The notes under the pieces: generated by a model
Told to the model about the DNA's origin: nothing
Database searches by the model: none
What the model saw: the letters and a program-made list of their open reading frames with translations, nothing else
Translations under genes and position numbers: made by a program
Part shown: piece by piece, positions 3,214 to 59,119 of the stretch
Layout: each line of letters opens with the position of its first letter
Numbering within the stretch: position 1 is the first letter of the stretch
Source of the DNA: Chloropicon primus
Taxonomy: Eukaryota; Chlorophyta; Chloropicophyceae; Chloropicales; Chloropicaceae
NCBI GenBank assembly: GCA_023205875.1
Contig: CP060766.1
Span: 372,001 to 436,000, forward strand
Direction: 5' to 3'
Length of the DNA: 64,000 nucleotides

Positions 3214-3479
3214 CGTCCCTAATTCCCTTCCGTTGCCTTCGGTTCTCCTCCTTCCACTCGATCCCTTTGAAAGACAAACAGGCAAACAAACAGGCAAACA
3301 ATTTCAGTCAGAACGTCATTCCTTTCAAGTGAGAGCTCATTCGAAAGATCGTGACACGACGCTTCCGTCGATATCTTCCCCTTCCCCTCGAGCCCTCCCC
3401 TTCCTCCCTCACTTTGCTTTCAAAAGACGCACCTTCGTCGAGCTCCTCCTCTCTCTCTCTCTCGTTTGAACTGAAAGCC

Positions 3480-3514
<35 letters not shown>

Positions 3515-3888
3515 TGGGCGGAGTGGAGCGCAAAGGTGGGCGGATTGTGCCAAGGGGAGGGGAGAAGGACGAGTTTTGTCTAGAGATCGGGAAAGATTGT
3601 CTCACGCTCTTTCGAATGGTTACTTGGTTGCCTGTGTTTCTCTTGATTTCGTGACGGAAACGAGTTGTCATTGCATGGAGAGGCCAGGAGGCAGGAGGGA
3701 GAGAGAGGGAGTTGTTGCCAACGGGAGGTGAGGTCGTAGAGGAAGAGGGCGTGGGGAAGGGTCAAGGTGGACCACATTGGTTTGATGTACCACGGATTCG
3801 ACGGCGATGTTCTCGTAGTCGTTCTGGTTCCGTAACTCTTCACGACAAAGGATTTGGCGTGGCATTGAAGGAGGAGAGAGGAGACACA
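3214..3888. promoter_or_regulatory. Divergent promoter region between PDCD5 and the WD40-like gene
   Basis: These 675 bp between two outward-facing genes show no supported coding sequence. They hold a minus-oriented copy of the CTCTTTCGAAAGAG-type element (3315-3370) facing PDCD5. A weaker plus-oriented copy near 3590-3630 faces the WD40-like gene. A GA dinucleotide run lies at 3483-3511. The two element copies point outwards, each toward its own gene. Confidence 0.6.
3315..3370 (-). promoter_or_regulatory. Palindromic promoter-linked element, copy for PDCD5
   Basis: Read on the minus strand it has GAAGCGTCGTGTCACG, then TCTTTCGAATGAGC, then TCACTTGAAAGGAA. This is the same block order as the strong copies at 10.2, 34.6 and 36.5 kb. 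It ends about 100 bp upstream of the PDCD5 ATG and has the same orientation as that gene. Confidence 0.6.
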
Positions 3889-9724: not shown

Positions 9725-10233
9725 GATGATGATGATGATGATGGAATTAAATCCGAACGAACGAACGAACGAACGAATGAATGGACGAAGGAGGCCAACG
9801 AATCGGAATGGAGCCTCGTCGTATCACCCCCCTGCTCCACCTCTGTCCTCCCTCGAAGCCAAGCCTTTGCTGAGCATCAACAACAACAACAGCAACAACA
9901 ACAACGTGATGGGCAAAAGTCAATCCTTCATTCCTTTTTCATTCCATCCTCTAGACGTAACCATTTCTCACGAGGTTGGTCTCATTCGAAAGAGAAGGAG
10001 ATGAATATTGTTGTGACGATGTTCTCGTCCCCTTCCGTTCCCCTCCTCTCACTCCCTCGCCGCTGTTCCAACGCACTCACCTCTCTTCGCCCCGATCGAG
10101 CCCTTCAGCCCACCATTTACGAACTCAAATTGGAAGACAGATCGGGCGAACGAGAGAGAGAGAGAGAGAGGAGAAGGAAGCGGCAGAGGAGGACCGTGTA
10201 AGGGACTAGAACGGGACGAGGACGGAACATTAA

Positions 10234-10299
10234 GAAGCGTCTGGTCTTGATCTTTCGAAAGAGCCGTCGCTCGAAGGAAACGGTGCTCTGGTGAGGATT
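10234..10299 (+). promoter_or_regulatory. Palindromic promoter-linked element, CDC16 copy 1
   Basis: The blocks in order are GAAGCGTCTGGTCTTGA, TCTTTCGAAAGAGCCGTCGC, TCGAAGGAAACG and CTGGTGAGGATT. The second copy follows 181 bp downstream. Confidence 0.75.
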
Positions 10300-10414
10300 G
10301 GAGGAAGAGAAACGTGAGAGAGGTCAAGGCAGACAGAGAGGGGGATCACCGAGGAGAGGAGGCGACGAGGAGGACGCGAGTTGGCGCTGGAGGTCCAGAT
10401 AGTGGCAGACTAAA

Positions 10415-10500
10415 GGAAGCGTGTCGTCTTGATCTTTCGAAAGAGCCATCGCTCGAAGGAAACGACCCGGTGGTGAGGATTTGAGGAGCGCGAAGACGAG
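10415..10500 (+). promoter_or_regulatory. Palindromic promoter-linked element, CDC16 copy 2
   Basis: Same block order as the preceding copy, with GGAAGCGTGTCGTCTTGA, TCTTTCGAAAGAGCCATCGC and GGTGGTGAGGATTTGAGGAG, continuing into CGCGAAGACGAGAGA. It ends about 255 bp before the CDC16 ATG, in the gene's orientation. Confidence 0.75.
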
Positions 10501-16579: not shown

Positions 16580-17049
16580 CCTTCTCCCTTTGTCGAGGAA
16601 AAAAAAAAAAGAAAAAGGAAAGAGGTTTCGATTCTTCTTGAGGAAGAACGCGAAGCTTCCTTTCGATCCTCCGCGGTCCCTCGCCCTCCCGCCGTCCTTT
16701 CACTCACCTATCTCCTCCCTCTGCCTCGATCGAAACCCGGAAAACAGAAAACAACAAGCAGCAGGAGGCCATCGTCCAATCCGTCCTGCGCCAGACGTTA
16801 CGGGCGTTACGAAAGAGGACGGGAGCGCGCGGGAGGAGGTAGAGGAAGAGAGAGAGAGAGACGGGGGACCGAACAGAGGGAAGCGTCTTCTCTTGCTCTT
16901 TCGAACGAGCCGTCGCTCGAAAGGAACGGCGCTCTGGTGAGGATCTGACGACACGAAGACGGGGGGTTGGGGCGAGGGGGTAGCGAGCGGCGGCGGCAAG
17001 GGGCTTTGTCCAAGGCGTCGTCATTGTGTGTTTGGACGACGAGGAGAGG
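16580..17049. promoter_or_regulatory. Divergent promoter region between epsin and bZIP genes
   Basis: 470 bp. The epsin side has A-rich and GAAGC-like sequence without a clear element copy. The bZIP side holds a long, well-preserved element copy (16790-16962), oriented toward the bZIP gene. Confidence 0.6.
16790..16962 (+). promoter_or_regulatory. Palindromic promoter-linked element, long copy at the bZIP gene
   Basis: It includes an upstream GAGGACGGGAGCGCGCG block and a GA-rich spacer. Then come GGGAAGCGTCTTCTCTTG, CTCTTTCGAACGAGCCGTCG, CTCGAAAGGAACGG and GGTGAGGATCTGACGACACG. It ends about 90 bp before the bZIP ATG. Confidence 0.75.
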
Positions 17050-20304: not shown

Positions 20305-23300
20305 CTAGAGACCGATGCCACCCTTGTCCGAGTTCATCGACATGGCGGCAAGCCTTGGGTCATTCCTGAGCTTGCTGTCGAGGGCGTAGTACTTCTGCAA
20401 GGCTTGCTCCTCGTGCTTCTTGAGTCTCTGCTCGAGAATGTGAATCCTGAACATGGACTCCTCACAGGCCTTCTCGTACTCCTCCTCTTCCTCTTGCGAC
20501 ATCTGGTCCCTGTCTCTCTGGAAGTTGGCCTGCCTCTTTGCCAACGCAGCAGTCTCCTCGTCATGCCTGGCTTGGATGATGTTGGCCCGCTCAATGAGCC
20601 TGTCCTTGAGGGCCTTCAGGCACTTGTCTCTCACAGCGAAGCACTCCGTCCTCGTCAGGTGCTTGACGTTGATCGTCGAAGGCAAGAAGGCGCTCAAGAA
20701 GTCGTGCTCCACCTGCTCCTCCTCTTGCTTCTCTTCGTCACTCTCCTCCTTCTTGATACGGGTGACATCGTAATATGGTACAGTGAGGATGATGTTCTGC
20801 TCCTCCTTCATCCGGGAGTCCAAGATCGAGCGGATCTCCCTCTCCACGTCACGGATGGCCTGACTGCACTCCCTCTCGGCCAGGAGAAGGCGCTGGTACT
20901 CCTCAAGAAGGGCGCTGCCGGTGGGCTTCTCCTTCAACGTGTCCACCTCCGTGATGTGCGTGAGCCCCTCCTTGGTGTAAAGGCGGGAGCTCGCAGTGAT
21001 GCGGTCCTCGCCAAAGTGGAAGTTCAAGCGAATCTGGTCCGCTGCAACGAAGTACGTCCGCTTGTACACGTCGTCCCCGACAGGAATGTCGGCTCTCCTG
21101 GAGAACTTCTCTGTCATCTTCAGGAAAGGAAGCGCCGCCGTCTCGACCTTTTGGTCTGCCTTCTCCTGGTCCTGGTTGAACATGGCAATGTCATCCTCTT
21201 CAAGGGCCTCGAGCTCGGCGTCGTCATAAGTGACCGACCTGTAGATCAAGTGGTCGTCCCTCTCCTTGAAGAATTCCGAGATCTTCTTGTTGATGACCTC
21301 CTCCCTCTTGAGAAGGCCGTCCAGTCGGGCGCCGTGATGAAACTCGAACAGCCTGTACTCCCCCTTCTTCGTGACCATCTTCTTCAGCCCGAAGGATGAC
21401 CCCTCATCGAAGAGCTCGATGACCGTCTCCTCCAGGGAAAGGGTGACCCTCTGCCGGAGCTTGTCCTTGCGACGAGTGAAGTACTCCCTCGTCTCTTCGA
21501 TCTTCTCGTAATCCTCGTCCTGGAAGATCACAAGCCTTTCGATCATGCCGTCCCACCTCGCCGTATCCCCGAACATCGCGAAAACTTCGTGGATGCACTT
21601 GTAGTACTTCCTCTCCTTGCTGCCTTTCGGACACCTCAAGTCAAAGATGTCTTGAGGAATCTGGATGGCGCTGCACCAGCTCCTCGGCATGTCTATGTTG
21701 AACTTGTTCATGTAATTTTCCTCTGCCTCCTCTTCCTTGGTCTCCCTCGGTGTCGCAGATGGCGCCTCGCTGCTGCCAAACTGTCGAAGGCCGCTCGGAG
21801 TAATGCCGTCCTTGACCGTCCTTGGGGTCGGGCCAGTCGAATAGATCGTGTCCGCAGCCTCGCTCTCTTCCTGCTCGTCGACCCCAACCTCCTGGCTCAG
21901 CATGCTCTCCCACTGCTTCTCGTTCGTGAGGTTGAAGGTCATGGGCGCGACAGGAATCGGAGTACCCGTCTCCGTCAGCTGCATGTTTGCCCAGAAGTTG
22001 TGGTTGTTCCAAATGAACTCCACTCCCTGGTAAGGACTCTCCGCGACCTTGTAGACCGTTCCCGTGGACGGCTCCACGAAGACGTGCGAAGGGATGTCCC
22101 TCTGAGGTGCCATCACGAGCACCCAACAGTGCAAGTGCTTCGAAGCGCTCGAGTAAGGGGTCACTTGCTCGTAGTGAGGCTTCTTCTGCTTCTCCTCTTC
22201 ACCCTTGTCGAAGTTGATCGCCTTTTTTGCCTTCATCTCCTTCTCGTAATTGCTCTGCAAGTGTTTCGACTTCTTGATCACGTACTTTGGGGAGTCCACC
22301 ACGTTGGCCTTCTTGTCCTTCCCCGTTTTCTCCTTCCCAACTATTGCTACAGTTTGCTTCCTATGCAGGTAGGGGCAAACGGTCCTCGTCTGATTGTTCT
22401 CGGTGACCCACTCGGGTGCGTAACCGCAGACGCAGTACGCGTCGTACCCGGCGCCGATCAGCAGGGAGGTCAGCAAGATGCTCATGTCAAAGCAATCTCC
22501 GCTCTGCCACTTGATGATGGTCTGCGAGGAAGGAATGTACAAGGGAAACCTCGTCCTGTCCTTGAGCGTCTCGTACTTGATGAAGTTGGAAACGAACTGG
22601 GCACAGCCTTCCAGGTCGTAAAGGTCGGTGTGGTTCAGCTGCGTCGGCCTGACAGTCGTGCAGATGAACTTTTGGACTCCACACTCGTTGAGCGGGAGGA
22701 GCAGCAGCTGGTGCCTGTGCGGGTACAACTCCGTGAACGTCTTGTCGAAGTCCTTGGCGTAATTAATGATCTTGTCCTCCTTGTTTGTCGTGGACGTGTA
22801 CGTCGCAGGCATGGTGTCCAAATTGGAGAGCACGTGCTTGATGTTCTTCTCCTTGATGTTGATGTTCCTGAAAGTCTCCAGCCCGCTCTCCATGGGCTGC
22901 AGCTGCTCGAACTCCACTGTCCGGAGAATATCCCAGTACGCGTGGACGTCCTTCTGCGACGACCTCGGCCTGTCGTCCTCCTTGGCACCGATCTGCAGCG
23001 CACAGATTCTGTTTCCAGAGATGAAAGGAGCCATGTAGGCGTTGGACTCCATCACCGAGTCCAGGATCTTCCACTCTCCCCTCAGGCTCCTCAACGTGTC
23101 GGCCACCGTCTCCCCTTCCTTGATGCTGTACTCGAACGAGTACAGGCCGTCCACGAGCCCGCCCATCTCGTGGGTGCCTCCCACGAGGTACAGCTTGGTC
23201 TCGTACTCGACCATGATCTGCCCGTAGGACGGCGAAGGCATGACGGGAGTGACGAGCTTGCTCGCCTCGTACCACGTGTAACTGTTCAGATCCAGGTAGA

Positions 23301-24777
23301 ACAAGTCGTCCAGCACAAAGTTGTTGCGTCCTCCCCTCACCCACAGGAGTTCGTGCTCCTCCACTTCCCCGTCCACGACAATATCGATGGGAGAGGTGCA
23401 GATGCCGCAAGCTTGCCTTGGCGAAGGCGCGGCACCCACCGTCGGGAGCTGCTGCCAGGTGTAGGTCGCCAAATCCAGCGAGTGGAGGTCGTTGTACCTC
23501 ATGCCGTTCCCGTGACCGCCAAAGACGATCATGGTCTGGCCGTCCGGGGAGAGGGTGCACGAGGCGTACTCCCTCGGGGCCGGCATCGTGCCCTCGCACA
23601 GCGGGTTGTACCACGTGAGGGAATCCAAGTCGAGAATGAAGATCGAGTTCGTTCTCTTCCTGTCCGCGGTCACACCGCCGAAGATGATCAGCCTGGCGGA
23701 ATCCGGGTGGTACACCGCCGAGTGGCCGTCCCTCGGCTCGGGAACCTTTCCGGACGTCTTGAGGACCCTCCACTTGAGGAACATCTCGTCGATGTACAGA
23801 ATCTCATTCGTTTTCGCGGACTTGCTTTGGACGAAACCTCCGAACACGAGGAACTTGTTCCCGATGGCCGTGATGGTGTGCCCGGTCCTAAACTCGCAAA
23901 GCTTGCTGGACGCCGGGTAGCGGATCTGCTCGCTGATCACCGAGTCCACTTCAGTCACCTCGCCGTCCTCGGGTGCGTCCTGCAAGATCTTGTACTGCTG
24001 GAAGGCGCCCACCCACAAGCCCACCGGCTTGAGCCTCTCCCTCTCCTCCTGCTTCACCCTCTCGAGCTCGTCCCTCAAGAACTCTGTGAACTTGGAAAGC
24101 CCCTCCTCGCTCATGCTCTTGAAGGGCTCCTTCAGGTTGTTGTACCTCGTCTCGAAGTGGTTCAGGTTGGGCAAGAAGCCAAGCTCGTATGGGATGTCCG
24201 TGAGCGAGTTGGCGTTCACGTCCAAGTAGGCCAGCTTCTCCAGGCTCGCGATGGACTTTGGCAGGTTGGCCAGCCTGTTGTTCGACAAGTCGATCCTCTG
24301 CAGCTCTGTCATCGCCCCAATATTCTCAGAGATGTCCTCAATCGAGTTGTTCTCGGCTTTGAGTATCTGCAAGTTCGTCAAGGTCGCCAAGTTGTCACCG
24401 ATAGTCGTGACCTTGTTTCCAGAGATATCAAGCTCCTCCAGGGACTGCAGCGCTGATATCCCATCAGGTATCTCCTGCAGCAAGTTTCCAGTGAACTCAA
24501 GCTTCTTCAGGCTCGGCAAGGAGCTCAGCACGGAGGGAAGCAGCGCAAACTTGTTGAAGCTTAACCGAACCACTTTCAGGTTCGTCAGCTCTCCCAGTTC
24601 CTTGGGCAGCTCCGTCAGCAGGTTTCCTCTCAAGTCTATCTCGCTCAGGTTCGGTATGGTGGACTTGATCTGATGGATGGAAGCGGCGGAGATTTCAGCT
24701 ATCTTGAGGTAGGACAAGTTCAGCTTCCCTCCCTTCTTTGCTTCCGCTATCCTGGATTTCAACCTCTCTGGATCCAT
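20305..24777 (-). CDS. DRC7: Dynein regulatory complex subunit DRC7 with N-terminal LRR and kelch domains
   Basis: A single exon of 1490 residues. Residues about 15-220 are leucine-rich repeats (LTNLKVVRLSFNKF, LQSLEELDISGNKV). Residues about 285-570 are kelch blades (FLVFGGFVQ, LIIFGGVTAD, MIVFGGHGNGM). Residues about 640-960 are the DRC7/CCDC135 transglutaminase-like domain with LLLLPLNECGVQKFICTT, QSGDCFDMSILLTSLLIGAG (Cys near 760), LHCWVLVMAP (His near 884) and FVEPSTG. The remainder is the charged, coiled-coil DRC7 C-terminus. DRC7 belongs to the nexin-dynein regulatory complex that joins axonemal doublets. Human DRC7 is much shorter and lacks LRR and kelch. The third triad position reads Glu (FVEP) where human has Asp. 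Confidence 0.93.
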   Translation of the reverse strand: MDPERLKSRIAEAKKGGKLNLSYLKIAEISAASIHQIKSTIPNLSEIDLRGNLLTELPKELGELTNLKVVRLSFNKFALLPSVLSSLPSLKKLEFTGNLLQEIPDGISALQSLEELDISGNKVTTIGDNLATLTNLQILKAENNSIEDISENIGAMTELQRIDLSNNRLANLPKSIASLEKLAYLDVNANSLTDIPYELGFLPNLNHFETRYNNLKEPFKSMSEEGLSKFTEFLRDELERVKQEERERLKPVGLWVGAFQQYKILQDAPEDGEVTEVDSVISEQIRYPASSKLCEFRTGHTITAIGNKFLVFGGFVQSKSAKTNEILYIDEMFLKWRVLKTSGKVPEPRDGHSAVYHPDSARLIIFGGVTADRKRTNSIFILDLDSLTWYNPLCEGTMPAPREYASCTLSPDGQTMIVFGGHGNGMRYNDLHSLDLATYTWQQLPTVGAAPSPRQACGICTSPIDIVVDGEVEEHELLWVRGGRNNFVLDDLFYLDLNSYTWYEASKLVTPVMPSPSYGQIMVEYETKLYLVGGTHEMGGLVDGLYSFEYSIKEGETVADTLRSLRGEWKILDSVMESNAYMAPFISGNRICALQIGAKEDDRPRSSQKDVHAYWDILRTVEFEQLQPMESGLETFRNINIKEKNIKHVLSNLDTMPATYTSTTNKEDKIINYAKDFDKTFTELYPHRHQLLLLPLNECGVQKFICTTVRPTQLNHTDLYDLEGCAQFVSNFIKYETLKDRTRFPLYIPSSQTIIKWQSGDCFDMSILLTSLLIGAGYDAYCVCGYAPEWVTENNQTRTVCPYLHRKQTVAIVGKEKTGKDKKANVVDSPKYVIKKSKHLQSNYEKEMKAKKAINFDKGEEEKQKKPHYEQVTPYSSASKHLHCWVLVMAPQRDIPSHVFVEPSTGTVYKVAESPYQGVEFIWNNHNFWANMQLTETGTPIPVAPMTFNLTNEKQWESMLSQEVGVDEQEESEAADTIYSTGPTPRTVKDGITPSGLRQFGSSEAPSATPRETKEEEAEENYMNKFNIDMPRSWCSAIQIPQDIFDLRCPKGSKERKYYKCIHEVFAMFGDTARWDGMIERLVIFQDEDYEKIEETREYFTRRKDKLRQRVTLSLEETVIELFDEGSSFGLKKMVTKKGEYRLFEFHHGARLDGLLKREEVINKKISEFFKERDDHLIYRSVTYDDAELEALEEDDIAMFNQDQEKADQKVETAALPFLKMTEKFSRRADIPVGDDVYKRTYFVAADQIRLNFHFGEDRITASSRLYTKEGLTHITEVDTLKEKPTGSALLEEYQRLLLAERECSQAIRDVEREIRSILDSRMKEEQNIILTVPYYDVTRIKKEESDEEKQEEEQVEHDFLSAFLPSTINVKHLTRTECFAVRDKCLKALKDRLIERANIIQARHDEETAALAKRQANFQRDRDQMSQEEEEEYEKACEESMFRIHILEQRLKKHEEQALQKYYALDSKLRNDPRLAAMSMNSDKGGIGL

Positions 24778-25597
24778 CTTGCCACAGCAACAACTCTTCT
24801 ACACAAACACAAACACAAACACAAGAGAGACCACCACTGGGTCCCTTACAATTGTTTGTCCTTGGATGCAAGCCAAACCAATGCTCCGTCCTGCTTCCTC
24901 TCCCTCTGTTGTGCCGCTCTCTTCCTACAACAATACTATACTCTAGACACACACACACACACACAACCGGTTGGAGACCACAAGCAGCAAACCTTGGACT
25001 TTGGGCCTACAGTGGTGTGGTCCCACAAAGCAAAGCAATTGGGATACAATGGAGGCAATGGAGGCAATGGAGGCAACAAGAGATCCTCCTCCTCTGTCTC
25101 TCCCTGTCTCTCTGTCTCTCTGTGTGTGTGTGTCTCTTCGCTCTTCTCCGTCCAAGCCGCGCCCCTCCAACGGCCTTCTCCTCAAGTCAAACCTAATTCC
25201 TTTGTACATCGAGAGACATTAATTTTCCTGACGATGGGAATTCCGTTGTTACGTGAGAGACGTTTGGTCCCATGTGTGTGTACCACTCTCGGTGTGATGT
25301 CATAGACGGAATTATGTCGTGCGTCCCACGAGAAAGGGGAGGGAGAGGGAGAGAGAGATACTGTGTGGGGAGCGAAGGGAGTAAGAGGGAAAGAGGTAAT
25401 GTTTGAGGCAATTGGGGGGCAGAGAGAGAGGGGAGGACTGTGGGGACGGAAGCAGGTCGAAGCATTGTCTCGTTCTCTTTCCGCAGACCCCTCGGTCGAA
25501 GGAAACGGCGTAGTGATGAGGATTTTGAGTCTTACTGACATAGCTCCTTTCGTTTCATGGATGGGTGACAACTGACAGAGAGAGAGAGACAGAGACA
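24778..25597. promoter_or_regulatory. Shared divergent region between DRC7 and the axonemal thioredoxin
   Basis: 820 bp between two head-to-head putative flagellar genes. It contains AC dinucleotide runs (24808-24825, 24946-24964), a GGAGGCAAT triplicate near 25050-25077 and TCTCTG repeats near 25100-25130. A plus-oriented element copy (25447-25530) sits next to the thioredoxin gene. No coding frame is supported. Confidence 0.55.
25447..25530 (+). promoter_or_regulatory. Palindromic promoter-linked element at the thioredoxin gene
   Basis: The blocks are CATTGTCTCGTTCTCTTTCC, then CCCTCGGTCGAAGGAAACGG, then GTGATGAGGATTTTGAG. The palindrome itself is degenerate. It ends about 65 bp before the ATG, in the same orientation. 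Confidence 0.65.
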
Positions 25598-28274: not shown

Positions 28275-28667
28275 CTTTCCTTCCTCTTTGCTTCCTTGCT
28301 TCTCCACGAGCGAAATCCTTCGAGTGACGGCTCTTTCGAAAGAGCAAGAAGAGACGCTTCGATTGGCGCCACCCTCCTCAACCCTTGTGCGCGTTATCGA
28401 GGCGCCAAGCGTCCAAAACACTCGTGTTGCCGTCCAAAGGAGAGGAGAGCCACTCGTTCGCTAAGATCTTTTTGATGAGATCCTCTGGATCAGATAAAGA
28501 GAAAGGGCGCGGATCGATCGATCGATCGGTGGGGACGATAGGCACGTAGTAAGCGATCGTTGGCGAGGAGAGGGTTGCGATCGGTGCGAACGCGACGGCG
28601 ATCGATAGGACTCGTCACGCTCTTTCCGTTGGTGTGACCATTGCCAAGGTTTCGTTCACGAGCGACG
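28275..28667. promoter_or_regulatory. Divergent promoter region between ZEP and the histone deacetylase gene
   Basis: 393 bp. A minus-oriented element copy (28306-28362) faces ZEP, and a weak plus-oriented one (28605-28640) faces the deacetylase. An ATCG tetranucleotide run lies near 28513-28528. The AAGAAG run near 28090-28120 lies within the ZEP coding sequence, not in this region. Confidence 0.6.
28306..28362 (-). promoter_or_regulatory. Palindromic promoter-linked element, ZEP copy
   Basis: On the minus strand it reads CGAAGCGTCTCTTCTTG, then CTCTTTCGAAAGAGCCGTCA, then CTCGAAGGATTTCG. The palindromic core is perfect. It ends about 30 bp before the chosen ZEP ATG. Confidence 0.75.
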
Positions 28668-34615: not shown

Positions 34616-34700
34616 GGAGCAGCGTCTCGTGCTCTTTCGAAAGAGGCGTCGCGCGAAAGAAACGACCCAGTGGTGAGGATCTGGGGACACGAAACGAGAG
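34616..34700 (+). promoter_or_regulatory. Palindromic promoter-linked element, ankyrin-gene copy 1
   Basis: Reads AGCGTCTCGTG, CTCTTTCGAAAGAGGCGTCG, CGCGAAAGAAACGACCCAG, TGGTGAGGATCTGGGGACAC. The core palindrome is intact. Confidence 0.75.
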
Positions 34701-34804
34701 AGAGAGGGGCAGAAAGAGATCGAGGAGGAGATCACCGAGGAGGGGAGGCGACGACGAGGGCTGGAGTTTGTGCCGGAGGTTTCTCTCGAGTGATAGACGA
34801 GCGG

Positions 34805-34880
34805 AAGGAGTGTCTTTTCCTCATTAGAACGAGCCCTCGCGCGCGACAAGAAGGACCCGGTGGTCGGGATCGTCTGAGGA
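34805..34880 (+). promoter_or_regulatory. Palindromic promoter-linked element, ankyrin-gene copy 2 (diverged)
   Basis: Reads AAGGAGTGTCTTTTCCTC, ATTAGAACGAGCCCTCGC, AAGGACCCGGTGGTCGGGAT. The first half of the palindrome is degraded, but the downstream blocks keep order and spacing. Confidence 0.6.
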
Positions 34881-34894
34881 GCACGGACGTGAAG

Positions 34895-36304
34895 ATGGCG
34901 GTGACGAGGGGAGCGAGCAAGAGGCAGAGGATTGAGCCCAAACACGCGCTGGAGGTGTTGCCAGGTAGTGCATGGCGCATCATTGGCAAGCATGTGGCCG
35001 ACTTCGACCGGGTCGCTTTTGGGTTTACCTGCAAGACGTTCCTCGAGGCGGTGACAATGGCGACGGCGAACCCTGATCTGAAGAAGAAGGTTGCTCTGAA
35101 GACGGACCTGAGAGGACATCGGTTGTTCGAGGAGATGCCTCGCTTCAGTTTGAATTGGTTCCAGTGGGTGTTTCAGTCGTTCGAAAGGAGGAAGGGAGCA
35201 CCGGGACTATGGCATGGACCTGGCAGGTACTACGACCACTTCTATGACTCTCACCTGATGTACCTCGCCGCTTTCCAGGGCAGCAAGAAGGCGATGGAGT
35301 GGTTGGTGAGCCAAGGGATACCTTTGAAGATCAAGGGCAAGTATTTTAGAAGCGTTAATAATGAAGTGGTAGCAGTTTTAGGCGCTGCTGCCGGAGGTCA
35401 TATTGCGATGCTCGAATGGTTGAGGAGCAAGGGTTGCGAGTTTGATGAGTCGACTTGTTCTGGCGCAGCTAAAGGAGGTCACCTTGACGTTCTGAAGTGG
35501 CTCCGAAGCCAGGACCCGCCTTGTGATTGGGACCAGGAGACTTGTAGAAAGGCAGCTCGAAGAGGTCACCTTGATGTTCTGCAGTGGGCTCGAAGCCAGG
35601 ACCCGCCTTGTGATTGGAACTGGAGGACTTGTAAATGGGCAGCTCGAGGAGGTCACCTTGACGTTCTGAAGTGGCTCCGAAGCCAGGATCCGCCTTGCCC
35701 TTGGGACCAGCAGACTTGTGCTGATGCAGCTCTAGGAGGTCACCTTGATGTCCTGCAGTGGGCTCGAAGCCAGGATCCGCCTTGTGATTGGGACAAGTTG
35801 ACTTGTGAAGGTGCAGCTCGAGGAGGTCGCCTTGATGTTCTGCAGTGGGCTCGGAGCCAGGACCCGCCTTGCCCTTGGGGCTCGGATACTTGTGCTGATG
35901 CAGCTGTAGGAGGTCACCTTGATGTCCTGCAGTGGGCTCGAAGCCAGGATCCGCCTTGTGATTGGGACAAGTTGACTTGTGAAGGTGCAGCTCGAGGAGG
36001 TCGCCTTCATGTTCTGCAGTGGCTTCGGAGCCAGGACCCGCCTTGTGATTGGAACGAGTGGACTTGTGCTGGTGCAGCTGGAGGAGGTCAGCTTGGTGTT
36101 CTGCAGTGGCTCCGAAGTCAGGATCCGCCTTGCCCTTGGGACCAGGAGACTTGTTCTAAGGCAGCTCGAAGAGGTCACCTTCTCATTCTCCAGTGGGCTC
36201 GAAGCCAGGACCCGCCTTGCCCTTGGGACCCAATTGAATGCATGGTGTGGGCGGACAGCAGGAAAGACCAGCACGTCATCGAATGGATCAATGCCAATTC
36301 GTAA
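34895..36304 (+). CDS. Ankyrin-like array protein with 29-residue HLDVLQW repeats
   Basis: A single exon; the ATG at 34895 gives 469 residues (MAVTRGASKRQRIEPKHALE). Residues about 20-60 look like an F-box-type helical start (LEVLPGSAWRIIGKHVADFD, FGFTCKTFLEAV). From about residue 165 come ten tandem repeats, mostly 29 residues (87 bp), of the form HLDVLQWARSQDPPC-x-W-x4-TC-x2-AA-x-GG. The type is common in large paralogous families of some picoalgae. Repeats 5 and 7 are almost identical at the DNA level, showing recent duplication of a two-repeat block. The function is probably substrate or partner binding; the partner is unknown. Confidence 0.88.
   Translation: MAVTRGASKRQRIEPKHALEVLPGSAWRIIGKHVADFDRVAFGFTCKTFLEAVTMATANPDLKKKVALKTDLRGHRLFEEMPRFSLNWFQWVFQSFERRKGAPGLWHGPGRYYDHFYDSHLMYLAAFQGSKKAMEWLVSQGIPLKIKGKYFRSVNNEVVAVLGAAAGGHIAMLEWLRSKGCEFDESTCSGAAKGGHLDVLKWLRSQDPPCDWDQETCRKAARRGHLDVLQWARSQDPPCDWNWRTCKWAARGGHLDVLKWLRSQDPPCPWDQQTCADAALGGHLDVLQWARSQDPPCDWDKLTCEGAARGGRLDVLQWARSQDPPCPWGSDTCADAAVGGHLDVLQWARSQDPPCDWDKLTCEGAARGGRLHVLQWLRSQDPPCDWNEWTCAGAAGGGQLGVLQWLRSQDPPCPWDQETCSKAARRGHLLILQWARSQDPPCPWDPIECMVWADSRKDQHVIEWINANS
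35741..36088 (+). repeat. 174-bp higher-order duplication within the ankyrin-like array
   Basis: The segment beginning CACCTTGATGTCCTGCAGTG at 35741 recurs at 35915, exactly two 87-bp units later, with near identity for about 100 bp before the copies diverge. Confidence 0.85.
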
Positions 36305-36406: not shown

Positions 36407-36612
36407 CGGTGGATTTTCTCCCTTCCGCTAAACCATCATAACGGCCCGAGGCCACGAGGGGCCGAACGAGGACGGGAGCACGCGTCGGAGGAAAAGAGAT
36501 AGAGAAGAGGAGGACAGGAAAGAAGGAAGCGTCGTCTCGTGCTCTTTCGAACGAGCTCTCGCGCGAAAGAAACGACCCAGTGGTGAGGATCTGGCGACAC
36601 GAAACGCGAAAA
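36407..36612 (+). promoter_or_regulatory. Long promoter-linked element (plus copy of an inverted pair)
   Basis: It begins GGTGGATTTTCTCCCTTCCG, then AACCATCATAACGG, CGAACGAGGACGGGAGCACG, GAAGGAAGCGTCGTCTCGTG, CTCTTTCGAACGAGC and GTGGTGAGGATCTGGCGACA. The same series of blocks occurs on the minus strand at 40640-40860. Confidence 0.75.
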
Positions 36613-36619
36613 AGAGAGG

Positions 36620-36777
36620 ACAGACACACACACAGTGAAAGAGAAAGAGAGAGAGATCAACCGATTGCGATGCGCATCGAAAGAGAGAGATGCAGTTGGA
36701 TCCGCCAATGTCCCACCCTCCCTCCCCTTTCCCCTCCTCCACATCATCAAGTCCTCCGCATCCATCACCTCCAGCTG
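36620..36777 (+). repeat. Exact 158-bp direct repeat, copy 1
   Basis: By eye it is identical to 37899-38056 (offset 1279 bp) from the ACAGACACACAC start to the CACCTCCAGCTG end. Single mismatches bound it on both sides. It is GA-rich, then CT/CCT-rich, and has no long open frame on the plus strand. Confidence 0.92.
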
Positions 36778-37529: not shown

Positions 37530-38326
37530 GAGTGTTCGAGTCTGTAATACACCTGGCGACGAGGCGCCATCTCTATCGAGGGAGGGCTCGACCAAGAGTG
37601 GAAGGAGGGGAAGACGCGGCGGCTCTACTTGCCTGGCCATCGCTCCCCCTCCCCCCCGTCCACCTTGAACATCATCATCACCTTGATCATCACCTCGCAA
37701 TCCAAACTCTGAAGCTCTCTTGTACAATTGGGTCAATCTCAACGTGTGAGGGATCCATCGAAAGAGCAAGAGGCAATGGCCCCGTCAGTGACCCTCCTCC
37801 CTCCCCTTTCTCCTCCTCCACATCGTCTCCACCAGCCGTCATCAGTGATCAGTGTTGACTCATCACCTCCCTTCCCGAGACTGGCTGGTGACTGACACAC
37901 AGACACACACACAGTGAAAGAGAAAGAGAGAGAGATCAACCGATTGCGATGCGCATCGAAAGAGAGAGATGCAGTTGGATCCGCCAATGTCCCACCCTCC
38001 CTCCCCTTTCCCCTCCTCCACATCATCAAGTCCTCCGCATCCATCACCTCCAGCTGCTCCAATCCTCTGCTGCTCTGTTCTCCTGCAAGAAGAAGGAAAA
38101 TTGTGGATTGGCGGACGGCGCAGTAGTGAAGCGGAAAGGTGAGTTTTGCGACGCATGTTTGGGGCGAGAGGGGGTGAAGCGAGAAAGGAGGGTTGGACAG
38201 GTCGATGCATCATCTCTTTCTCTTTCGTTTGATACCTTCCTCGAAAGGTATGACGCTCTGGTAACGCTGCTGCGGGACCTGACACCTTTGGTCTCCTCAG
38301 GTCTCCTCTCAAGGGATTGGTTCAGG
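37530..38326. promoter_or_regulatory. Region upstream of the CCCH zinc-finger gene, with a 5' UTR intron
   Basis: It contains the second copy of the exact 158-bp repeat (37899-38056). A more diverged, CCTCC-rich copy of its 3' half lies at about 37788-37850. A probable 5' UTR intron runs from CGGAAAG|GTGAGTTT near 38141 to GTCTCCTCAG at 38300. A weak minus-oriented element core (TCGAAAGAGCAAGAG) lies at 37757. No coding frame is supported. Confidence 0.55.
37899..38056 (+). repeat. Exact 158-bp direct repeat, copy 2
   Basis: The partner of 36620-36777. It lies about 270 bp upstream of the CCCH gene's ATG and probably within its 5' UTR, just ahead of the UTR intron. Confidence 0.92.
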
Positions 38327-40597: not shown

Positions 40598-41130
40598 GAC
40601 AAACCAAACCAAACCAACCAACCAACGAAATGAATGAGAATTCTTTCTCGCCACTGCACCGTTTCTTTCGAGCGACGGCTCTTTCGAAAGAGCAAGAGAC
40701 AACGCTTCCTTCTATCTTGTCCTACGCGTCACTCTCTATTTCCCCGACGCGCTCTCCCGCCCTCTTCGTCTCCCCCCCCCTCTCTCTCTTTTCCTCCTCG
40801 TTCGCCCTCGTGCTCGCCCGTTATGATGGTTCAGCGGAAGGGAGAAATCCACCCAAACAGAGAGAGAGAGAGAGACAGAGGAGGAGGATCATAATCATAG
40901 TGACGGCGGTTGATGGATGAGGGAGCCAAGGGAGGATGATAGTGGCAGGTTGTCACCAACGTATCCGTATGCACCTCTTCCTGCTTTCCAAAGAGGCTCT
41001 CTCACTTGATGTGGAAGGGGGCAAGGAAGGGGATTGATAGTGCTGATCGGATCGATCCTCGACCCATCGATGCTATACTGCCTCGAGGATGATATGGGTA
41101 CGGTGCTGATGGTTCAAAACAAGTGCTTTT
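40598..41130. promoter_or_regulatory. Region between the Ldh2-type gene start and the FAD hydroxylase 3' end
   Basis: 533 bp. It carries the minus-oriented long element copy (40640-40860), a GA run near 40861-40876 and otherwise unremarkable sequence. No coding frame is supported. Confidence 0.55.
40640..40860 (-). promoter_or_regulatory. Long promoter-linked element (minus copy of an inverted pair)
   Basis: On the minus strand: GGTGGATTTCTCCCTTCCGC, AACCATCATAACGG, AGGGCGAACGAGGA, GAAGGAAGCGTTGTCTCTTG, CTCTTTCGAAAGAGCCGTCG, CTCGAAAGAAACGG and GCAGTGGCGAG. The core is at 40655-40712, about 60 bp before the Ldh2-type ATG. Confidence 0.78.
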
Positions 41131-45180: not shown

Positions 45181-46219
45181 TTGATGGTCCTAATTGACCT
45201 CAAGCAAAGGTAATGAGGATGAAACCCCTCCGCTTCACCCTCTGGCCATCGTCTCTGGCCAGGGGAACGGAAATGTTGCCCCGTAACAAGGATTCAGCAC
45301 TACGGAAAAGTCAAAAGGTTCAAGAATCGAAAAAATTCTGACTTTCTCCCCTTGGGACGGAAAGGTTCGGCGCAAGAAGCGTTTAGCACAGTGGAAATGT
45401 TAATCGTGAAAGAAGTGTACAAAGTACTGTGGTACCCTCGTACTTGGCCAAGATGGCATTAGCACGGGGGTTTGTGCGCGGGTTTGAGTGTACACGGGAT
45501 CTCTTGAACGGTCAAGGGGCACACCAACTTGCACATCGAGGAGGAGGAGGAGGAGCACATTGTGGAGGTGGCGGGATGATGGGAGAGCGATGGGAGGGCA
45601 AGGGAAGCGGGCCGAGGGAACAGTCTTCTCACGATCTTTCCGTAGTTGCCTCACTTGACGAAAATGCTTCGATTCTCGTTGAAAAATCCGATCCAGAGGT
45701 TGCGTGGTGGTGCTGGACCGAACCTAACGCCCAGTGATGCAATCCATTGATGCGATCCATTGCTCTAGGCCCGTGATGGATGGACGCCTCGAGGCCTTGT
45801 GCTCCACCCCGTGGCACCAGCACCCTTCCACCTCCCTCTCTCCACAGCAGGGGGTCCTCCGTCCTTCCGTCCACCGAGGCAGGCAAGCCATCATCCTGAA
45901 CGTTTGCGGAGCACTGAGAGCGTTTCACTGAGCATGCGAGCATGCAATCGAAAGCCCGAGAGGTGAACTATCGCTCAGTATTCCTTCCGTGTCCTCTTTC
46001 CATCCCCATCCACCCCTTGATCCTCTCCAGTCCAGTCCACCTGTCTCCACTTCAACACTTCATTCGGGAGGAGCAAACAGAAAACTGCTTCGACGACGAC
46101 GACGAGGACGAGGAGGTTGGTTCGGGCTTGAGGAGGAAGGTATTCACCAGTCGCACGAGGACGAGGGGGAGGCATCCTCGTGGCGGCTCCATCCCTCACC
46201 CCTTGTGCTCCTTCAGGAG

Positions 46220-47974: not shown

Positions 47975-48508
47975 GGTCCTCCCCTTCCCTTGTCCTGCGA
48001 CGACCGTCGCTCTCTCTCTCTCTCTCTCCCTCCCTCTCTCTCTCTCTTCCTCTTCTCTCTCTCTCTCTCTCTCTTTCTCCTCGGCTGTTCTGGGGGCCAA
48101 AGGTCATTGATGATCAGGAGGCCAAGGGATGATGATGATGATGATGATGAGGGGGTGATGATGGCGAGGGAGGAGGGGAATGGGGGGAGGTCGAAGGACA
48201 GTGGCTTCGCATTCTTCTCGCTCTTTCCAAAGAACCCTCGCTTGATGGGGTAACTGGGAAAGAAGGTCATTGATGATCAGGCCAAAAAAAAGGGACGAGG
48301 ATGGAGGAGGGGGACAGAGGTGGTGGTGGTGGTGGTGGTGGTGGATCAGGGGGGGGTAGGGAAGAGATGGCACCGTGAGCTCTTTGATCTGCTCACGGAG
48401 CCCTCAATTGAGAAGATTGGTGGCGGGGATCCAAAGATAATGCTAGATGCACGTCTGGTGTAGTGGTACAATCGATAATAATTTTACATTCAAAGCGAGG
48501 TTTCCTCC
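47975..48508. other. Region between the DprA-like gene start and the formin 3' end
   Basis: 534 bp. It holds a CT microsatellite (48008-48080), GATGAT (48130-48150) and GGT (48319-48344) runs, and two ATTGATGATCAGG copies (48106 and 48268). A plus-oriented element copy (48203-48255) faces no known plus-strand gene. From 48446 a tRNA D-arm-like TGGTGTAGTGGT occurs without a recognisable anticodon or T arm. Confidence 0.5.
48203..48255 (+). promoter_or_regulatory. Orphan promoter-linked element copy
   Basis: Reads GGCTTCGCATTCTTCTCG, CTCTTTCCAAAGAACCCTCG, CTTGATGGGGTAACTGGG. The core is a variant palindrome. No plus-strand coding gene follows before the formin 3' end. Confidence 0.55.
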
Positions 48509-51500
48509 TCAAACTTCCGCTGTGCCATTGGTGCTCGGCAGGTCCTGCCCCGCCGGGGCCTTGCTGCCCTGGACCTGCGAAGGTTCTTCGCTCCCCTGTT
48601 CCTCAGGGGGCTTCTCCCACCGCTCGTAGCGAACCGGCTCGTCGTGAATCGGGCAGTTGTACCCCGTTCTCTTGTACTCGGCTGGCTTGTAGGAGACGCC
48701 CCCGCTCCCCATGGCCGCAATCGATTTCGATTTCGCTCTCTTCTGCCTCCACACTTCCTTCTCCTTCTCCTCCTTCATCTGCTTCGTGATCGTGTTGTGC
48801 ACGTCCTTGTACGCCAGGGTCACCGAGGCGATGATGTCCCAGAACTCGGACTCGTTCTGGAGGGCTGCTGGATTCTCCCCGAAGTAGGACACCATGTCAG
48901 AAAAGCTCTTCTTGCATTTCTCCACCGCTTCGAGGAGGTCATTCTTCACCACGGTGGACTCCTCCACGAAGGTGGTCATCACGTCATAGTAAGCGTCGGC
49001 GACGATCTCGACGGCCACGCGGTCGACGCTCCCCCCCCCCTCCGGGTTCACGTTGAACTCCACCTTCACGGTCTCCACGGGCGAGTCCAGCTCGTACTTG
49101 GCGTCCATGAGATTCGATTCTATGGTCTCCAGGTGGCTCGCCACGTCCTGCAGGGAGGTCTTGATCTCCTTGCTGATCACGTGCGGAACCTCGTCAGCAA
49201 GTGATTTGGAATCCGGCCTGGCCTTCAAGATCATCTTCACGATGTAGTGCAACAAGTTGGAGTTGGAGTTATCCGTCGACCGGATGTCCTTGAGCTTGGA
49301 AAGTGCGCTCATGCGGTACCCCAAGGCGCTGCCAAGCCTCGTGCTGTGGTTCATGTAGTTGCCCAGCACCAGGGTGGACCTCAGAAGCAGGAGGAAAGTT
49401 CTTGACATTTTGATCTCGTGGACGGCCATGGTGTGGGCCTGCACGATGTTCTTGAGGTCCTCCAGCTGATCAATCAAAGTGAATTTGAGCAAGAAGGTCT
49501 TCATCCTCGAATCGATGTTCGGGATCTCGAGCAGCTTGAGGCAGAACTTCTCAGCATCGCTCAGCTTGGAGGAATTGCCCGCCGCGTGCAAGCTCAGAAG
49601 CACCTTCTTCTCGTCATCTGTCGGGATGCACTTGATGATGGCTTCGACGTTCTCCGAGGACATGAAGATATCGCCGTCGAGCCTGATGATTCCCCGGATG
49701 ATGGTGTCCTGCGGCACGTTGAACTTGGCAAGACTGATGCCCACCGCCGTCGCCCTCTTCATGTCCATCGCCATGACCGTCTTCTTTGCCTCCTTTGTTC
49801 TGTTCAGGTTGATCTTCTTCCTCACTGCCATGCTGAACGAGCTTTCGAAGGTGCTCGTCAGCTCGAGCGTCTTTCGCAAGTCATCGAGCGCCTTTTTCTT
49901 CTGCGTCGGGTTTTTGGAAGAATCCCAGAACGTCTGCTTGGCCCTCGTGTCCGGCAGCTTCGTCCAGTGAAAGGCCTTCATCTTCTTCCCTGGCTTTGGG
50001 CCTGGGTCCACCAGGGCCCCAGCCCTTCCAGGCATCGGCGGAGGAGGGGGCGCACCTGGCCTGCCAGGCATTCCTGGAGGCGGGGGCGGCGGCGGAGGCC
50101 CCCCACGGCCCCCCGGGGGAGGGGGAGGAGGGGGCGCCCCGGAAGGCACAGGCTTCTTCTTCGGCGTCGGCGCCAGGCAACGAGAAAGGCTGTCCTTGAA
50201 GATGTCTATCGTGTGAGACAGGTAGTTGTCCTCATCGTCCGAGAACTCTGCGATCGCGTTCAGCAATCCGCACTCTAGCATCTTTTCCAACCAAGCCTTC
50301 CTCAGATCAGTGCTGTCGACCTTGCTGGAGTCCGCTTGGCTTCCTTCTGCCATCGGCGACGTCAGGACAATGTTTATGAAGGTCATGATGTGACTCTTGA
50401 GGTCTATGTCAGCATCCGTGATCTTCAAGAGGTTCACGAGTGACAGAGTGATGAGGGGAAGCTCCAAGCTCTTTCCCGGCGCCTCCTGCTCGGGCGTGAA
50501 CTCGGCGAACTTTGCGTGAAGCTTGGGCGTGCACATGCCGTTGGTGTTCACCTCAATGCTATCGCTCACGTTAAGCATCGCTTTCATGACCTTGTTGAAC
50601 GCCTCGTTGCTGTACAGGCACAGGGCAGTCGCAATCTCGAAAATGAGCTTGGATGCGTCCGGGAAGACTGGGCTCAGGGCCCTCAACAGTCTTGAGATGC
50701 TGTCCTGGTTCGCGATGAGGCCGTCCATGCACACGTGGTTGTTCGTCAGCCCCCTCGTGCAGTTCATCACCTCGTGCCACGCCTCCGTATTGCACCTGTC
50801 GTTCGATGGGTTGAACTTCAAGACATCCTCCTTTCCTGACGGCTTGGAATGGAACTCAAACCCGTTGGGAGAGCCAAGCAAGTCGCTCCTGTCCATGATT
50901 CCCTCCTCCGTGTGCACCTTCCCTTCCAAGCTCTTGATGGCGCAGAGGAAGATCTTCGTGACAAGTGGGATGCCTTGCAGGGAGACGAAGAGCCGAAGCC
51001 ACGCGGCGGAGTTGTAATTCAGTCCATCCCTCAGCCCCCGAAGCAGGAACACGTTGAAGGGCTTCCCGTGCAGCTCACAGATGAGCCCCTCCGGGGACAC
51101 GAAGTCGCCCTTCTTGCTGGGCGACTGCGGCCTTGGCGTCTGCCAAGCCGCCCAATCCGGCTCGATCTTGGTCAGCTCCAGGAGGAGGAGCGACTTGGCC
51201 GCCAAGGAGGTGCTTGGGTTGCAGTTGCTGCTCGCCATTTGAGGCGGCGTCCCGGAAGGGAGTGGCGTCACCGGGGTGCCACTGGCGCTGGGCGTTGGCG
51301 GCCCACCACTCCTAGGAGTCGACGATGCGTCGCTCTGCTTGGCGATTTCCAGCCAACCGAGGAGAGAGCTCAGCTGCAGCTCCGTAAATGCCTTCGGGTG
51401 CTTTGTGATGAAGTCCAGCGCCCTGGCGTACTGCTCCTCGAGGGACTGCAGAGGCAAATCGGCCGTGTAGTTCAGCCGTAGGAGCTGCAATGGCGTCACC

Positions 51501-58655: not shown

Positions 58656-58710
58656 CTGAAGACGCTGTCTCTTACCTCCTCCTCTTTCCAAAGAGCCATC
58701 ACTTGTTGCA
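58656..58710 (+). promoter_or_regulatory. Palindromic promoter-linked element, variant copy
   Basis: Reads GAAGACGCTGTCTCTTACC, CCTCTTTCCAAAGAGCCATC, ACTTGTTGCAACAAGG, GGTGAGGGGTG. The core palindrome has CC/GG in place of CG. It lies 1.1 kb from the kinase ATG and 0.3 kb from the lipase ATG. Confidence 0.6.
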
Positions 58711-59119
58711 ACAAGGAGGTGAGGGGTGACAATCGAAGAGAGAGCACTATTGAGAGCACCAATGCGGACCTAAACAACAGAGTAAGACAAAGAGACAATG
58801 AGAGAGAGAGAGAGAGAGAAAGAAAGAGAGAAAGAAAGAAAGAGAGTGGTCATGCGATGCGAAGAGCAAGATCCTTTCTCGACCAAGGTTCTTCTCTCTT
58901 TCGTTTTCGTTTTCGTTTTCGTTCACCTCCTTGAAATTTCACCTCCTTGAAATTTCACCTTTCCTTTCCGTTGGTTTCAAAAATCTTTGACAATTAACCA
59001 GCAGACTAAAGTCCACCTTTGCAGTGGGCAAGCCAAGGGACAACCACATCACCAGGGACAACACAACAACCCCGCAAGCTTGCAACTTGACCACTGCATC
59101 CCATTGTCAACCCCGCTTG

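What the first reader, a model, noticed from the sequence alone, without database searches (positions are those of the whole stretch)
10234..10500. Promoter-linked palindromic element family tied to gene starts
A block series (GAAGCGTCKTCTCKTG, then CTCTTTCGAAAGAG, then CCRTCGCTCGAAGGAAACG, then GTGGTGAGGATYTG) recurs upstream of many unrelated genes. Good copies lie at 3315-, 10234+, 10415+, 16881+, 25463+, 28306-, 34616+, 36528+ and 40655-. Weaker ones lie near 3590+, 9965-, 28605+, 31045+, 34805+, 45625+, 48203+ and 58656+. Nearly all point in the direction of the following gene, within about 30-700 bp of its ATG. In divergent regions the two copies point outwards. This is too regular for a random transposon and looks like a transcription-start or core-promoter element, or a mobile sequence adopted as one. 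The near-perfect 14-bp palindrome suggests a dimeric DNA-binding protein.
Basis: seen in the sequence. Interest (0 to 1): 0.85.

Follow-up and report, generated by a model that had tools for sequence, protein, structure and literature searches.

The report
Gene-start DNA element spaced 182 bp
In the tiny marine green alga Chloropicon primus, a roughly 65-base DNA element recurs a couple of thousand times or more, in front of about a third of the genes sampled and pointing at them, and neighbouring copies tend to sit about 182 bases apart, close to the spacing of nucleosomes, so it is probably a new kind of promoter element.

Summary
The window is from Chloropicon primus RCC138. All 62 are intergenic by my gene models, none between convergent genes, and 52 of 56 point at the next gene. 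A relaxed core pattern has 2,072 matches genome-wide against 53 reversed. 40 of 115 genes carry it. Conservation runs from -16 to about +50 around TCTTTC, behind a purine-rich tract. The palindrome is not a general constraint. New: same-strand copies peak sharply at 182 bp, also in 12 of 16 sampled pairs whose flanks are no more alike than those of unrelated promoters; divergent copies peak near 240-270 bp. Chlamydomonas bulk chromatin repeats every 178 bp (PMC3225300, passage). Best reading: a long core-promoter-like element used at nucleosome-repeat spacing and spread by copying. Initiation and nucleosomes were not measured. My searches found no published description.

The parts
3300..3365 (-). 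element copy (61.7 bits), 136 bp from the predicted ATG of a dsDNA_bind (PDCD5-type) gene
3591..3656 (+). element copy (34.0 bits), divergent partner of the previous one; 282 bp from ATG
9945..10010 (-). element copy (45.4 bits), 270 bp from ATG of a TPR+DnaJ gene
10234..10299 (+). element copy (78.0 bits), distal copy of a tandem pair; 505 bp from ATG of a TPR-repeat gene
10416..10481 (+). element copy (73.6 bits), exactly 182 bp downstream of the previous copy; 323 bp from ATG
16880..16945 (+). element copy (81.9 bits), 184 bp from ATG
25459..25524 (+). element copy (62.9 bits), 123 bp from ATG
28295..28360 (-). element copy (62.6 bits), 130 bp from ATG of a FAD-binding gene
34616..34681 (+). 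element copy (70.0 bits), distal copy of a tandem pair (188 bp); 263 bp from ATG of an ankyrin gene
34804..34869 (+). element copy (27.8 bits), proximal copy of the pair; 75 bp from ATG
36526..36591 (+). element copy (75.5 bits), 286 bp from ATG of a NAD(P)-binding gene
37717..37782 (-). element copy (35.4 bits) pointing against the next gene (exception)
40643..40708 (-). element copy (71.7 bits), 152 bp from ATG of an Ldh_2-family gene
45618..45683 (+). element copy (34.1 bits), 733 bp from the predicted ATG of an Arf-family gene
45907..45972 (-). weak element copy (22.8 bits), 1378 bp from ATG
48205..48270 (+). weak element copy (28.0 bits) pointing against the next gene (exception); similar downstream sequence appears in rows at C3:244672 and C18:26175
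58666..58731 (+). weak element copy (20.2 bits), 1125 bp from ATG
10150..10233 (+). example of the purine-rich tract that precedes the elements (about -100 to -20 on average)

Best explanation
The element is a long, directional promoter element of protein-coding (RNA polymerase II) genes in Chloropicon primus. It defines one promoter class (about a third of genes) and most likely positions transcription initiation at or near its TCTTTC block. Counting the first base of the palindrome as 0, it is read from -16 to about +50 as one rigid footprint (GAA at -16 to -14, TCTC at -7 to -4, TCTTTC at +1 to +6, GR at +11, YTYR.TYGA at +16 to +24, ATTGGC or a related block near +29), behind a purine-rich tract that may help keep nucleosomes off. 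A promoter can carry one copy or a series; successive same-strand copies lie about one nucleosome repeat apart (182 bp) and divergent copies about 240-270 bp apart, as expected if each copy sits in an accessible gap of a regularly spaced nucleosome array. Copies spread by local tandem duplication and by occasional copying between promoters. Shown: the sequence family, its position, direction and spacing, its sub-types and the relatedness of copies. Inferred: initiation at the element, the nucleosome basis of the 182 bp, the copying route, the binding proteins.
For: Position and direction: 62 of 62 intergenic, 0 in convergent gaps, 52 of 56 facing the next gene; held-out test with the nine seeds: 31 hits, 0 in the reversed control, 30 intergenic, 25 of 26 facing the gene. 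Unrelated genes: dsDNA_bind, DnaJ/TPR, SufBD, FAD-binding, ankyrin, NAD(P)-binding, CCCH, Ldh_2. Number: 653 against 1 and 2,072 against 53 for reversed patterns. Rigid anatomy: 49 of the 51 copies at 30 bits or more were aligned and needed no gap in 66 columns (the scan itself is ungapped). Spacing, genome-wide same-strand pairs: 145-174 bp 110 (control 9), 175-204 bp 402 (7), 205-234 bp 51 (7); peak bin 180-184, median 182 in the 100 of 402 rows listed. Of 16 tandem pairs in fetched loci (arrays L029/L030 set aside) 15 are 176-188 bp and one 230 bp; in 12, all 176-185 or 188 bp, neither flank is more alike than flanks of unrelated promoters, and in 4 one flank beats all of them. Divergent pairs: gaps 213-242 42 (7), 243-272 189 (8), 273-302 79 (8); convergent at 243-272 only 33 (2). 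Chlamydomonas bulk nucleosome repeat is 178 bp (PMC3225300, passage); periodic 6mA marks internucleosomal DNA near gene starts in Micromonas and other species (PMC12695648, passages).
Against: No RNA 5' ends or nucleosome maps were available. Depletion of upstream ATGs, which would mark the 5' UTR, was inconclusive. CG and AA/TT show no 182-bp period over the sampled DNA; a CG dip at +60 to +120 and again at +240 to +300 after the elements is not independent of the tandem copies. Single copies show only a weak phase to the ATG (Rayleigh p about 0.06, n=32), and the position 182 bp away from 45 unpartnered copies holds no more weak matches than other positions (1 of 44 and 1 of 42 above 5 bits). 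Chlamydomonas values of 156 and 160 bp at two loci are also quoted. Young arrays show that duplication itself makes units of about 150-190 bp, so the spacing could come from how duplications happen and not from function. 4 of 56 copies with a downstream gene point away from it.
Confidence: 0.62

Rival explanations
1. A mobile element (MITE- or SINE-like, or introner-like) that inserts next to gene starts; direction and position reflect insertion preference and selection.
For: Copies in different promoters align in register; a left edge at -16/-17 recurs among other left edges (-8 to -122), right edges range from about +25 to +112, up to 98% identity over 50 bp. Pairwise identity is over-dispersed: among 37 type A copies from loci not chosen by motif, 17 of 656 pairs reach 80%, against at most 1 in 500 column shuffles. 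Other small algae carry introners that prefer nucleosome linkers (PMC9860276, passages).
Against: No consistent right end and no unit beyond the motif shared by all copies; information fades gradually. None of the 62 copies is in predicted coding sequence, introns or convergent 3' regions (one held-out hit of 31 falls in a gene span). No matches in viral contigs to two core patterns. Target-site duplications were not tested because the ends are not defined.
Confidence: 0.2
2. A binding site for one sequence-specific regulator (a large regulon), upstream of separately defined transcription starts.
For: Strong local motif; a discrete subset of genes (40 of 115); GAA and TTC half-sites fixed about a dyad at -5.
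Against: The footprint is about 65 bp with rigid spacing and strict direction; the carriers named are unrelated; some two thousand copies or more; dyad and palindrome show no co-variation.
Confidence: 0.15
3. A 5'-UTR RNA element or a first exon with a splice donor (GTGAGG near +42).
For: GTGAGG is a donor type in this genome (5 of 44 confident predicted introns) and occurs in many type A copies.
Against: Type B copies lack it; no folding signal (mean z 0.07, n=72) and no pair co-variation; the 182-bp tandem spacing is not explained.
Confidence: 0.03

Closest known systems
Composite Pol II core promoters with an initiator and fixed downstream elements (Inr/MTE/DPE, TCT initiator of animals; recalled)
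   Same: Directional, fixed spacing, close upstream of coding starts, pyrimidine-rich TCTTTC centre as in initiators.
   Different: Much longer conserved footprint (about 65 bp), two or more sub-types, copies in tandem at 182 bp; no initiation data here.
Tandem rDNA spacer promoters (recalled)
   Same: Promoter copies duplicated in series upstream of one transcription unit.
   Different: Here on dispersed protein-coding genes, with one spacing shared across the genome.
Introner elements of Micromonas and other algae (PMC9860276, passages)
   Same: Dispersed short repeats in compact algal genomes, tied to nucleosome spacing.
   Different: Introners lie in genes as introns; this lies between genes, before starts, and shares no complete unit.
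Nucleosome-phased 6mA/5mC at algal gene starts (PMC12695648, passages)
   Same: A nucleosome-scale period near transcription starts in green algae.
   Different: That is a chemical mark; this is a DNA sequence family. Chloropicon is not mentioned in that text.

Membership tests
Pol II core promoter element | Located just upstream of coding starts, directional | tested here: met
   52 of 56 face the next gene; 62 of 62 intergenic; none in 41 convergent gaps; gene models are predictions
Pol II core promoter element | Fixed internal spacing of sub-elements | tested here: met
   49 copies (of 51 at 30 bits or more) align over 66 columns without gaps; copies with indels would be missed by the ungapped scan
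Pol II core promoter element | Transcription starts at a fixed position in it | not testable with these tools
   no 5'-end RNA data; ATG depletion inconclusive
Pol II core promoter element | Required for transcription | not testable with these tools
   needs a reporter or a deletion
Universal core promoter of the species | Present at most genes | tested here: not met
   40 of 115 genes at 10 bits or more; bimodal scores; no comparable motif among 76 promoters without it
MITE or other terminal-repeat transposon | Defined ends shared by all copies | tested here: not met
   a left edge near -17 recurs but others occur; right edge varies; information fades
MITE or other terminal-repeat transposon | Target-site duplication | not tested
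   ends not defined
MITE or other terminal-repeat transposon | Spread independent of gene direction | tested here: not met
   strict direction and 5' position
Palindromic site of a dimeric DNA-binding protein | Both arms conserved symmetrically | tested here: not met
   left arm near-invariant, right arm variable; 72.3% of cells paired against 71.3% shuffled
Structured RNA or 5'-UTR element | Stable fold with compensatory changes | tested here: not met
   mean z 0.07; no co-variation; no Rfam match in the window at gathering score
Nucleosome-phased promoter array | Spacing equals the nucleosome repeat of the organism | tested here: inconclusive
   182 bp against 178 bp in Chlamydomonas bulk chromatin, 156 and 160 bp at two loci; not measured in Chloropicon; no 182-bp composition period

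The most novel reading that the evidence does not exclude
Chloropicon uses a promoter code quantised by chromatin: a 65-bp initiation element that is read only in nucleosome gaps, so that promoters grow and shrink in whole nucleosome repeats (one to about seven copies, some 182 bp apart) through tandem duplication and copying between genes, giving serial alternative start sites whose spacing is written in the genome and makes nucleosome phasing visible in bare sequence.
Probability: 0.35. Interest if true: 0.85.

Novelty: new variant of a known kind. Interest (0 to 1): 0.7.

Why it matters
Core promoters of green algae outside Chlamydomonas are little known (my impression, not searched in full), and how nucleosome spacing and start-site choice are tied together is an old question. 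A rigid 65-bp element at about a third of the sampled genes of a 17.6-Mb genome, repeated at a sharp 182 bp even where the flanks are no more alike than those of unrelated promoters, would be a sequence-encoded link between the two. It can be tested with existing RNA-seq and one MNase or nanopore-methylation run, and it would give ready promoter parts for this picoalga.

Tried and rejected
Upstream-ATG depletion to place the transcription start: inconclusive; ATG is below expectation on both sides of the element (19 against 42.5 downstream, 10 against 47.4 upstream, 24 genes). CG and AA/TT autocorrelation and phase profiles for a 182-bp nucleosome signature: no clear period apart from a CG dip that tandem copies share. 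Decayed partners 182 bp from single copies: no excess. Phase of single copies to the ATG: suggestive only (p about 0.06). RNA hairpin: rejected. Dyad about -5 (GAAAG..CTTTC, seen in L031 and in many listed divergent rows): half-sites fixed in composition but no co-variation. A motif in the promoters that lack the element: nothing comparable. Viral contigs: two core patterns, 0 matches each. Rfam over the window: 0 at gathering score; around 48000-48600 only sub-threshold matches. A less specific pair search (CTTTCSR) had too much chance background (608 against control 272; 279 against 172) and was replaced. A first relatedness test included loci fetched by an exact 21-mer of the element; I repeated it without them. 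A first flank test used simple base shuffles and lost the 230-bp pair of L027 through merging of overlapping hits; I repeated it against flanks of other loci with that pair kept. Literature: genome papers PMC6731263 (outline, abstract, passages) and PMC12301720 (passages) hold no occurrence of 'promoter', nor PMC12301720 of 'upstream', 'palindrom' or 'UTR'; searches listed nothing that describes such an element, judged from titles and starts of abstracts except for the passages named.

Full report
WHERE. The genome holding the window has 17,584,162 bp in 20 contigs, the longest 1,855,637 and the shortest 417,210 bp. These are exactly the figures printed for Chloropicon primus RCC138 in PMC12301720 (passages; the organism name rests on this match). 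It is a compact, intron-poor marine green alga (GC 57.44%, 0.494 genes per kb, average intron 152 bp).

THE OBSERVATION. The four blocks occur far above chance in the window. It converged on 62 copies; one shuffled version of the same sequence had none at 5 bits or more. Because a profile can feed on itself I checked two ways: all 62 stay at 8 bits or more when left out of their own profile, and the profile of the nine seeds alone, never shown the other loci, finds 31 copies there at 5 bits or more, with none in the reversed sequences; with all window hits as training it is 43 against 5. Genome-wide, one strict core pattern has 653 matches against 1 for the same pattern read backwards, and a relaxed one 2,072 against 53. 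The density in the sample would scale to about 4,000 copies (62/264 kb x 17.58 Mb, inference).

POSITION. I wrote a small gene finder (codon-periodic Markov model, introns, both strands). It predicts 130 genes in 264 kb, 0.49 per kb as published, with a median intron of 114 bp over its confident introns. All 62 copies are intergenic, although predicted gene spans cover 74% of the DNA. None is in the 41 gaps between convergent genes; 34 are in the 34 divergent gaps, 16 in the 34 tandem gaps and 12 beyond the outermost gene of a locus. Of 56 copies with a downstream gene, 52 point at it, 44 of these at 60-380 bp from the ATG and 8 at 422-1378 bp. None comes nearer than 60 bp. At the laxer held-out cut, 1 of 31 and 1 of 43 hits fall in a predicted gene span. 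Forty of 115 genes with at least 90 bp upstream have a copy at 10 bits or more and the scores are bimodal. The other promoters show no comparable motif. I named window genes by Pfam from the largest exon of 30 of the 32 predicted genes (5 of the 30 had no family). Carriers include dsDNA_bind (PDCD5-type), DnaJ/TPR, TPR, SufBD, FAD-binding, ankyrin, NAD(P)-binding, CCCH and Ldh_2 genes; non-carriers include sialyltransferase, ENTH, Na/H exchanger, Thi4, formin, lactate/malate dehydrogenase and G6PD genes. I see no functional theme.

ANATOMY. Upstream, about -100 to -20 is purine-rich (69-79% purine) (58 copies). The copies form at least two types: A (GAAGCG..CTCTTTCGAAAGAGCC..CGCTCGAA..) and B (GAAAG..TCTCACGATCTTTCGATTGATACC..). 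The palindrome is a property of type A. Across 49 copies its arms pair no better than shuffled arms (72.3% against 71.3%) and the right arm is far less conserved, so a symmetric dimer site is not the common denominator. There is no RNA-folding signal.

SPACING, THE NEW POINT. In the sample, tandem copies on one strand are 176, 182, 182, 182, 182, 183, 188, 188 and 230 bp apart. A gapped pattern for two cores on the same strand, run over the whole genome, gives 110 matches at 145-174 bp (control 9), 402 at 175-204 bp (control 7) and 51 at 205-234 bp (control 7). From the places listed (100 of 402, 100 of 110, 51 of 51; the listed 402-rows are the first in contig order, C1 to C8), scaled to the totals, the peak is the 180-184 bin; the median of the listed 175-204 rows is 182. 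Some pairs are counted on both strands because the type A core is palindromic. Divergent pairs peak at a gap of 243-272 (189 matches against 42 and 79 in the windows on either side; controls 7-8); convergent pairs at that gap number 33 (control 2), several of them the same palindromic pairs seen again. Of the 100 divergent rows listed, 78 are distinct pairs, spread evenly over that window, so the divergent distance is looser than the tandem one. In five of the eight tandem-paired genes of the sample the proximal copy is 70-77 bp from the ATG.

WHY 182? Two readings compete. (a) Function: 182 bp is close to the nucleosome repeat of a green alga (178 bp in Chlamydomonas bulk chromatin; the same passage quotes 156 and 160 bp at two loci; PMC3225300). 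In 16 tandem pairs from fetched loci (young arrays L029 and L030 set aside; L001, L006 and L031 had been fetched because of motif matches) 15 are 176-188 bp apart and one 230. In 12 of the 15, neither flank is more alike than the same flanks of copies at other loci; in the other 3, and in the 230-bp pair, one flank beats all of those nulls. Old pairs have thus kept their spacing while the flanks drifted, which suggests constraint. (b) Origin: there are young arrays with nearly identical units, for example six profile copies at about 170 bp on C16 (L029), seven at about 150-162 bp on C18 (L030) and four at 167 bp on C14; the genes behind them were not modelled. Duplication itself therefore makes units of nucleosome size. 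Both may be true. Against a general nucleosome signature, CG and AA/TT show no 182-bp period over the sampled DNA, single copies are only weakly phased to the ATG (p about 0.06, n=32) and show no excess of decayed partners.

SPREAD. Different promoters share long in-register matches: 98% over 50 bp between L001 and window 40692 (L001 was itself fetched by an exact 21-mer), 93.5% over 62 bp between L024 and window 40692, 85% over 111 bp between L001 and L024. A left edge at -16/-17 recurs, among others; right edges vary. With the 21-mer loci and an ankyrin-promoter cluster left out, 17 of 656 type A pairs reach 80% identity, against at most 1 in 500 column shuffles; type B shows no such excess (0 pairs at 80%). 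Type A copies are therefore related by descent, through gene conversion, template switching or transposition; the data do not say which.

INTERPRETATION. I conclude, at about 0.62, that this is a long core-promoter-like element marking one class of Pol II promoters, with initiation probably inside it, and with serial copies placed one nucleosome repeat apart. Sequence, position, direction, spacing and type A relatedness are shown; initiation, nucleosomes and proteins are inferred. A mobile element with insertion preference (0.2) and an upstream regulator site (0.15) are the main rivals.

NOVELTY. The two C. primus genome papers, searched for the word, do not mention promoters, and the library searches named in Tried and rejected listed nothing like it; that is not proof of absence, since most subscription papers are not held. 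I file it as a new variant of a known kind (composite core promoter), with the nucleosome-quantised promoter series as the bolder reading (0.35).

Noticed in passing
window 36620-36777 and 37899-38056: A perfect 158-bp repeat (100% identity), downstream of the element at 36526 and upstream of the one at 38204.
   Followed up: no
L029:1839-2860 (C16): Young tandem array of about 170-bp units, each with one core (six profile hits plus a diverged one); the gene behind it was not modelled.
   Followed up: partly
L030:1480-2430 (C18); also listed rows on C19: Array of seven units of about 150-162 bp with a third core variant (CTTTCCAAGGAGCCCTCACTTG); similar CTTTCCAAAGAGCCCTCACTTG pairs recur in the rows listed for C18 and C19.
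   Followed up: no
C1:1854986-1855388, C2:1768462-1768666, C3:306-510, C3:1502989-1503193, C4:867-1269: A roughly 198-bp repeat (CTTTCCGTGGTGC...) close to contig ends, probably a subtelomeric satellite; it matched the loose pair pattern by chance of sequence and is not the element.
   Followed up: no
window 48205-48270 +; C3:244672-244862; C18:26175-26347: A sub-family with unusually long downstream similarity (GATGGGGTAACYGGGAAAGAAGGTCAT...); in the window it points against the next gene, so it may drive a non-coding RNA. Rfam gave only sub-threshold matches there.
   Followed up: partly
L031:1420-1700 (C8): Divergent elements whose upstream halves form a head-to-head inverted repeat (GAAAG..CTTTC about a dyad at -5), perhaps two-way initiation.
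   Followed up: partly
window 34895-36304 and L021:7314-8870: Two genes whose tandem promoters (188-bp spacing) and coding starts match (86% over 578 bp); the window gene is an ankyrin gene, the other was not scanned. Looks like promoter series copied together with a gene family.
   Followed up: no
window 20305-24777 -: A 1,491-codon gene with LRR, Kelch and DRC7 (dynein regulatory complex) domains, a flagellar type of protein (label recalled), in a tiny alga.
   Followed up: no
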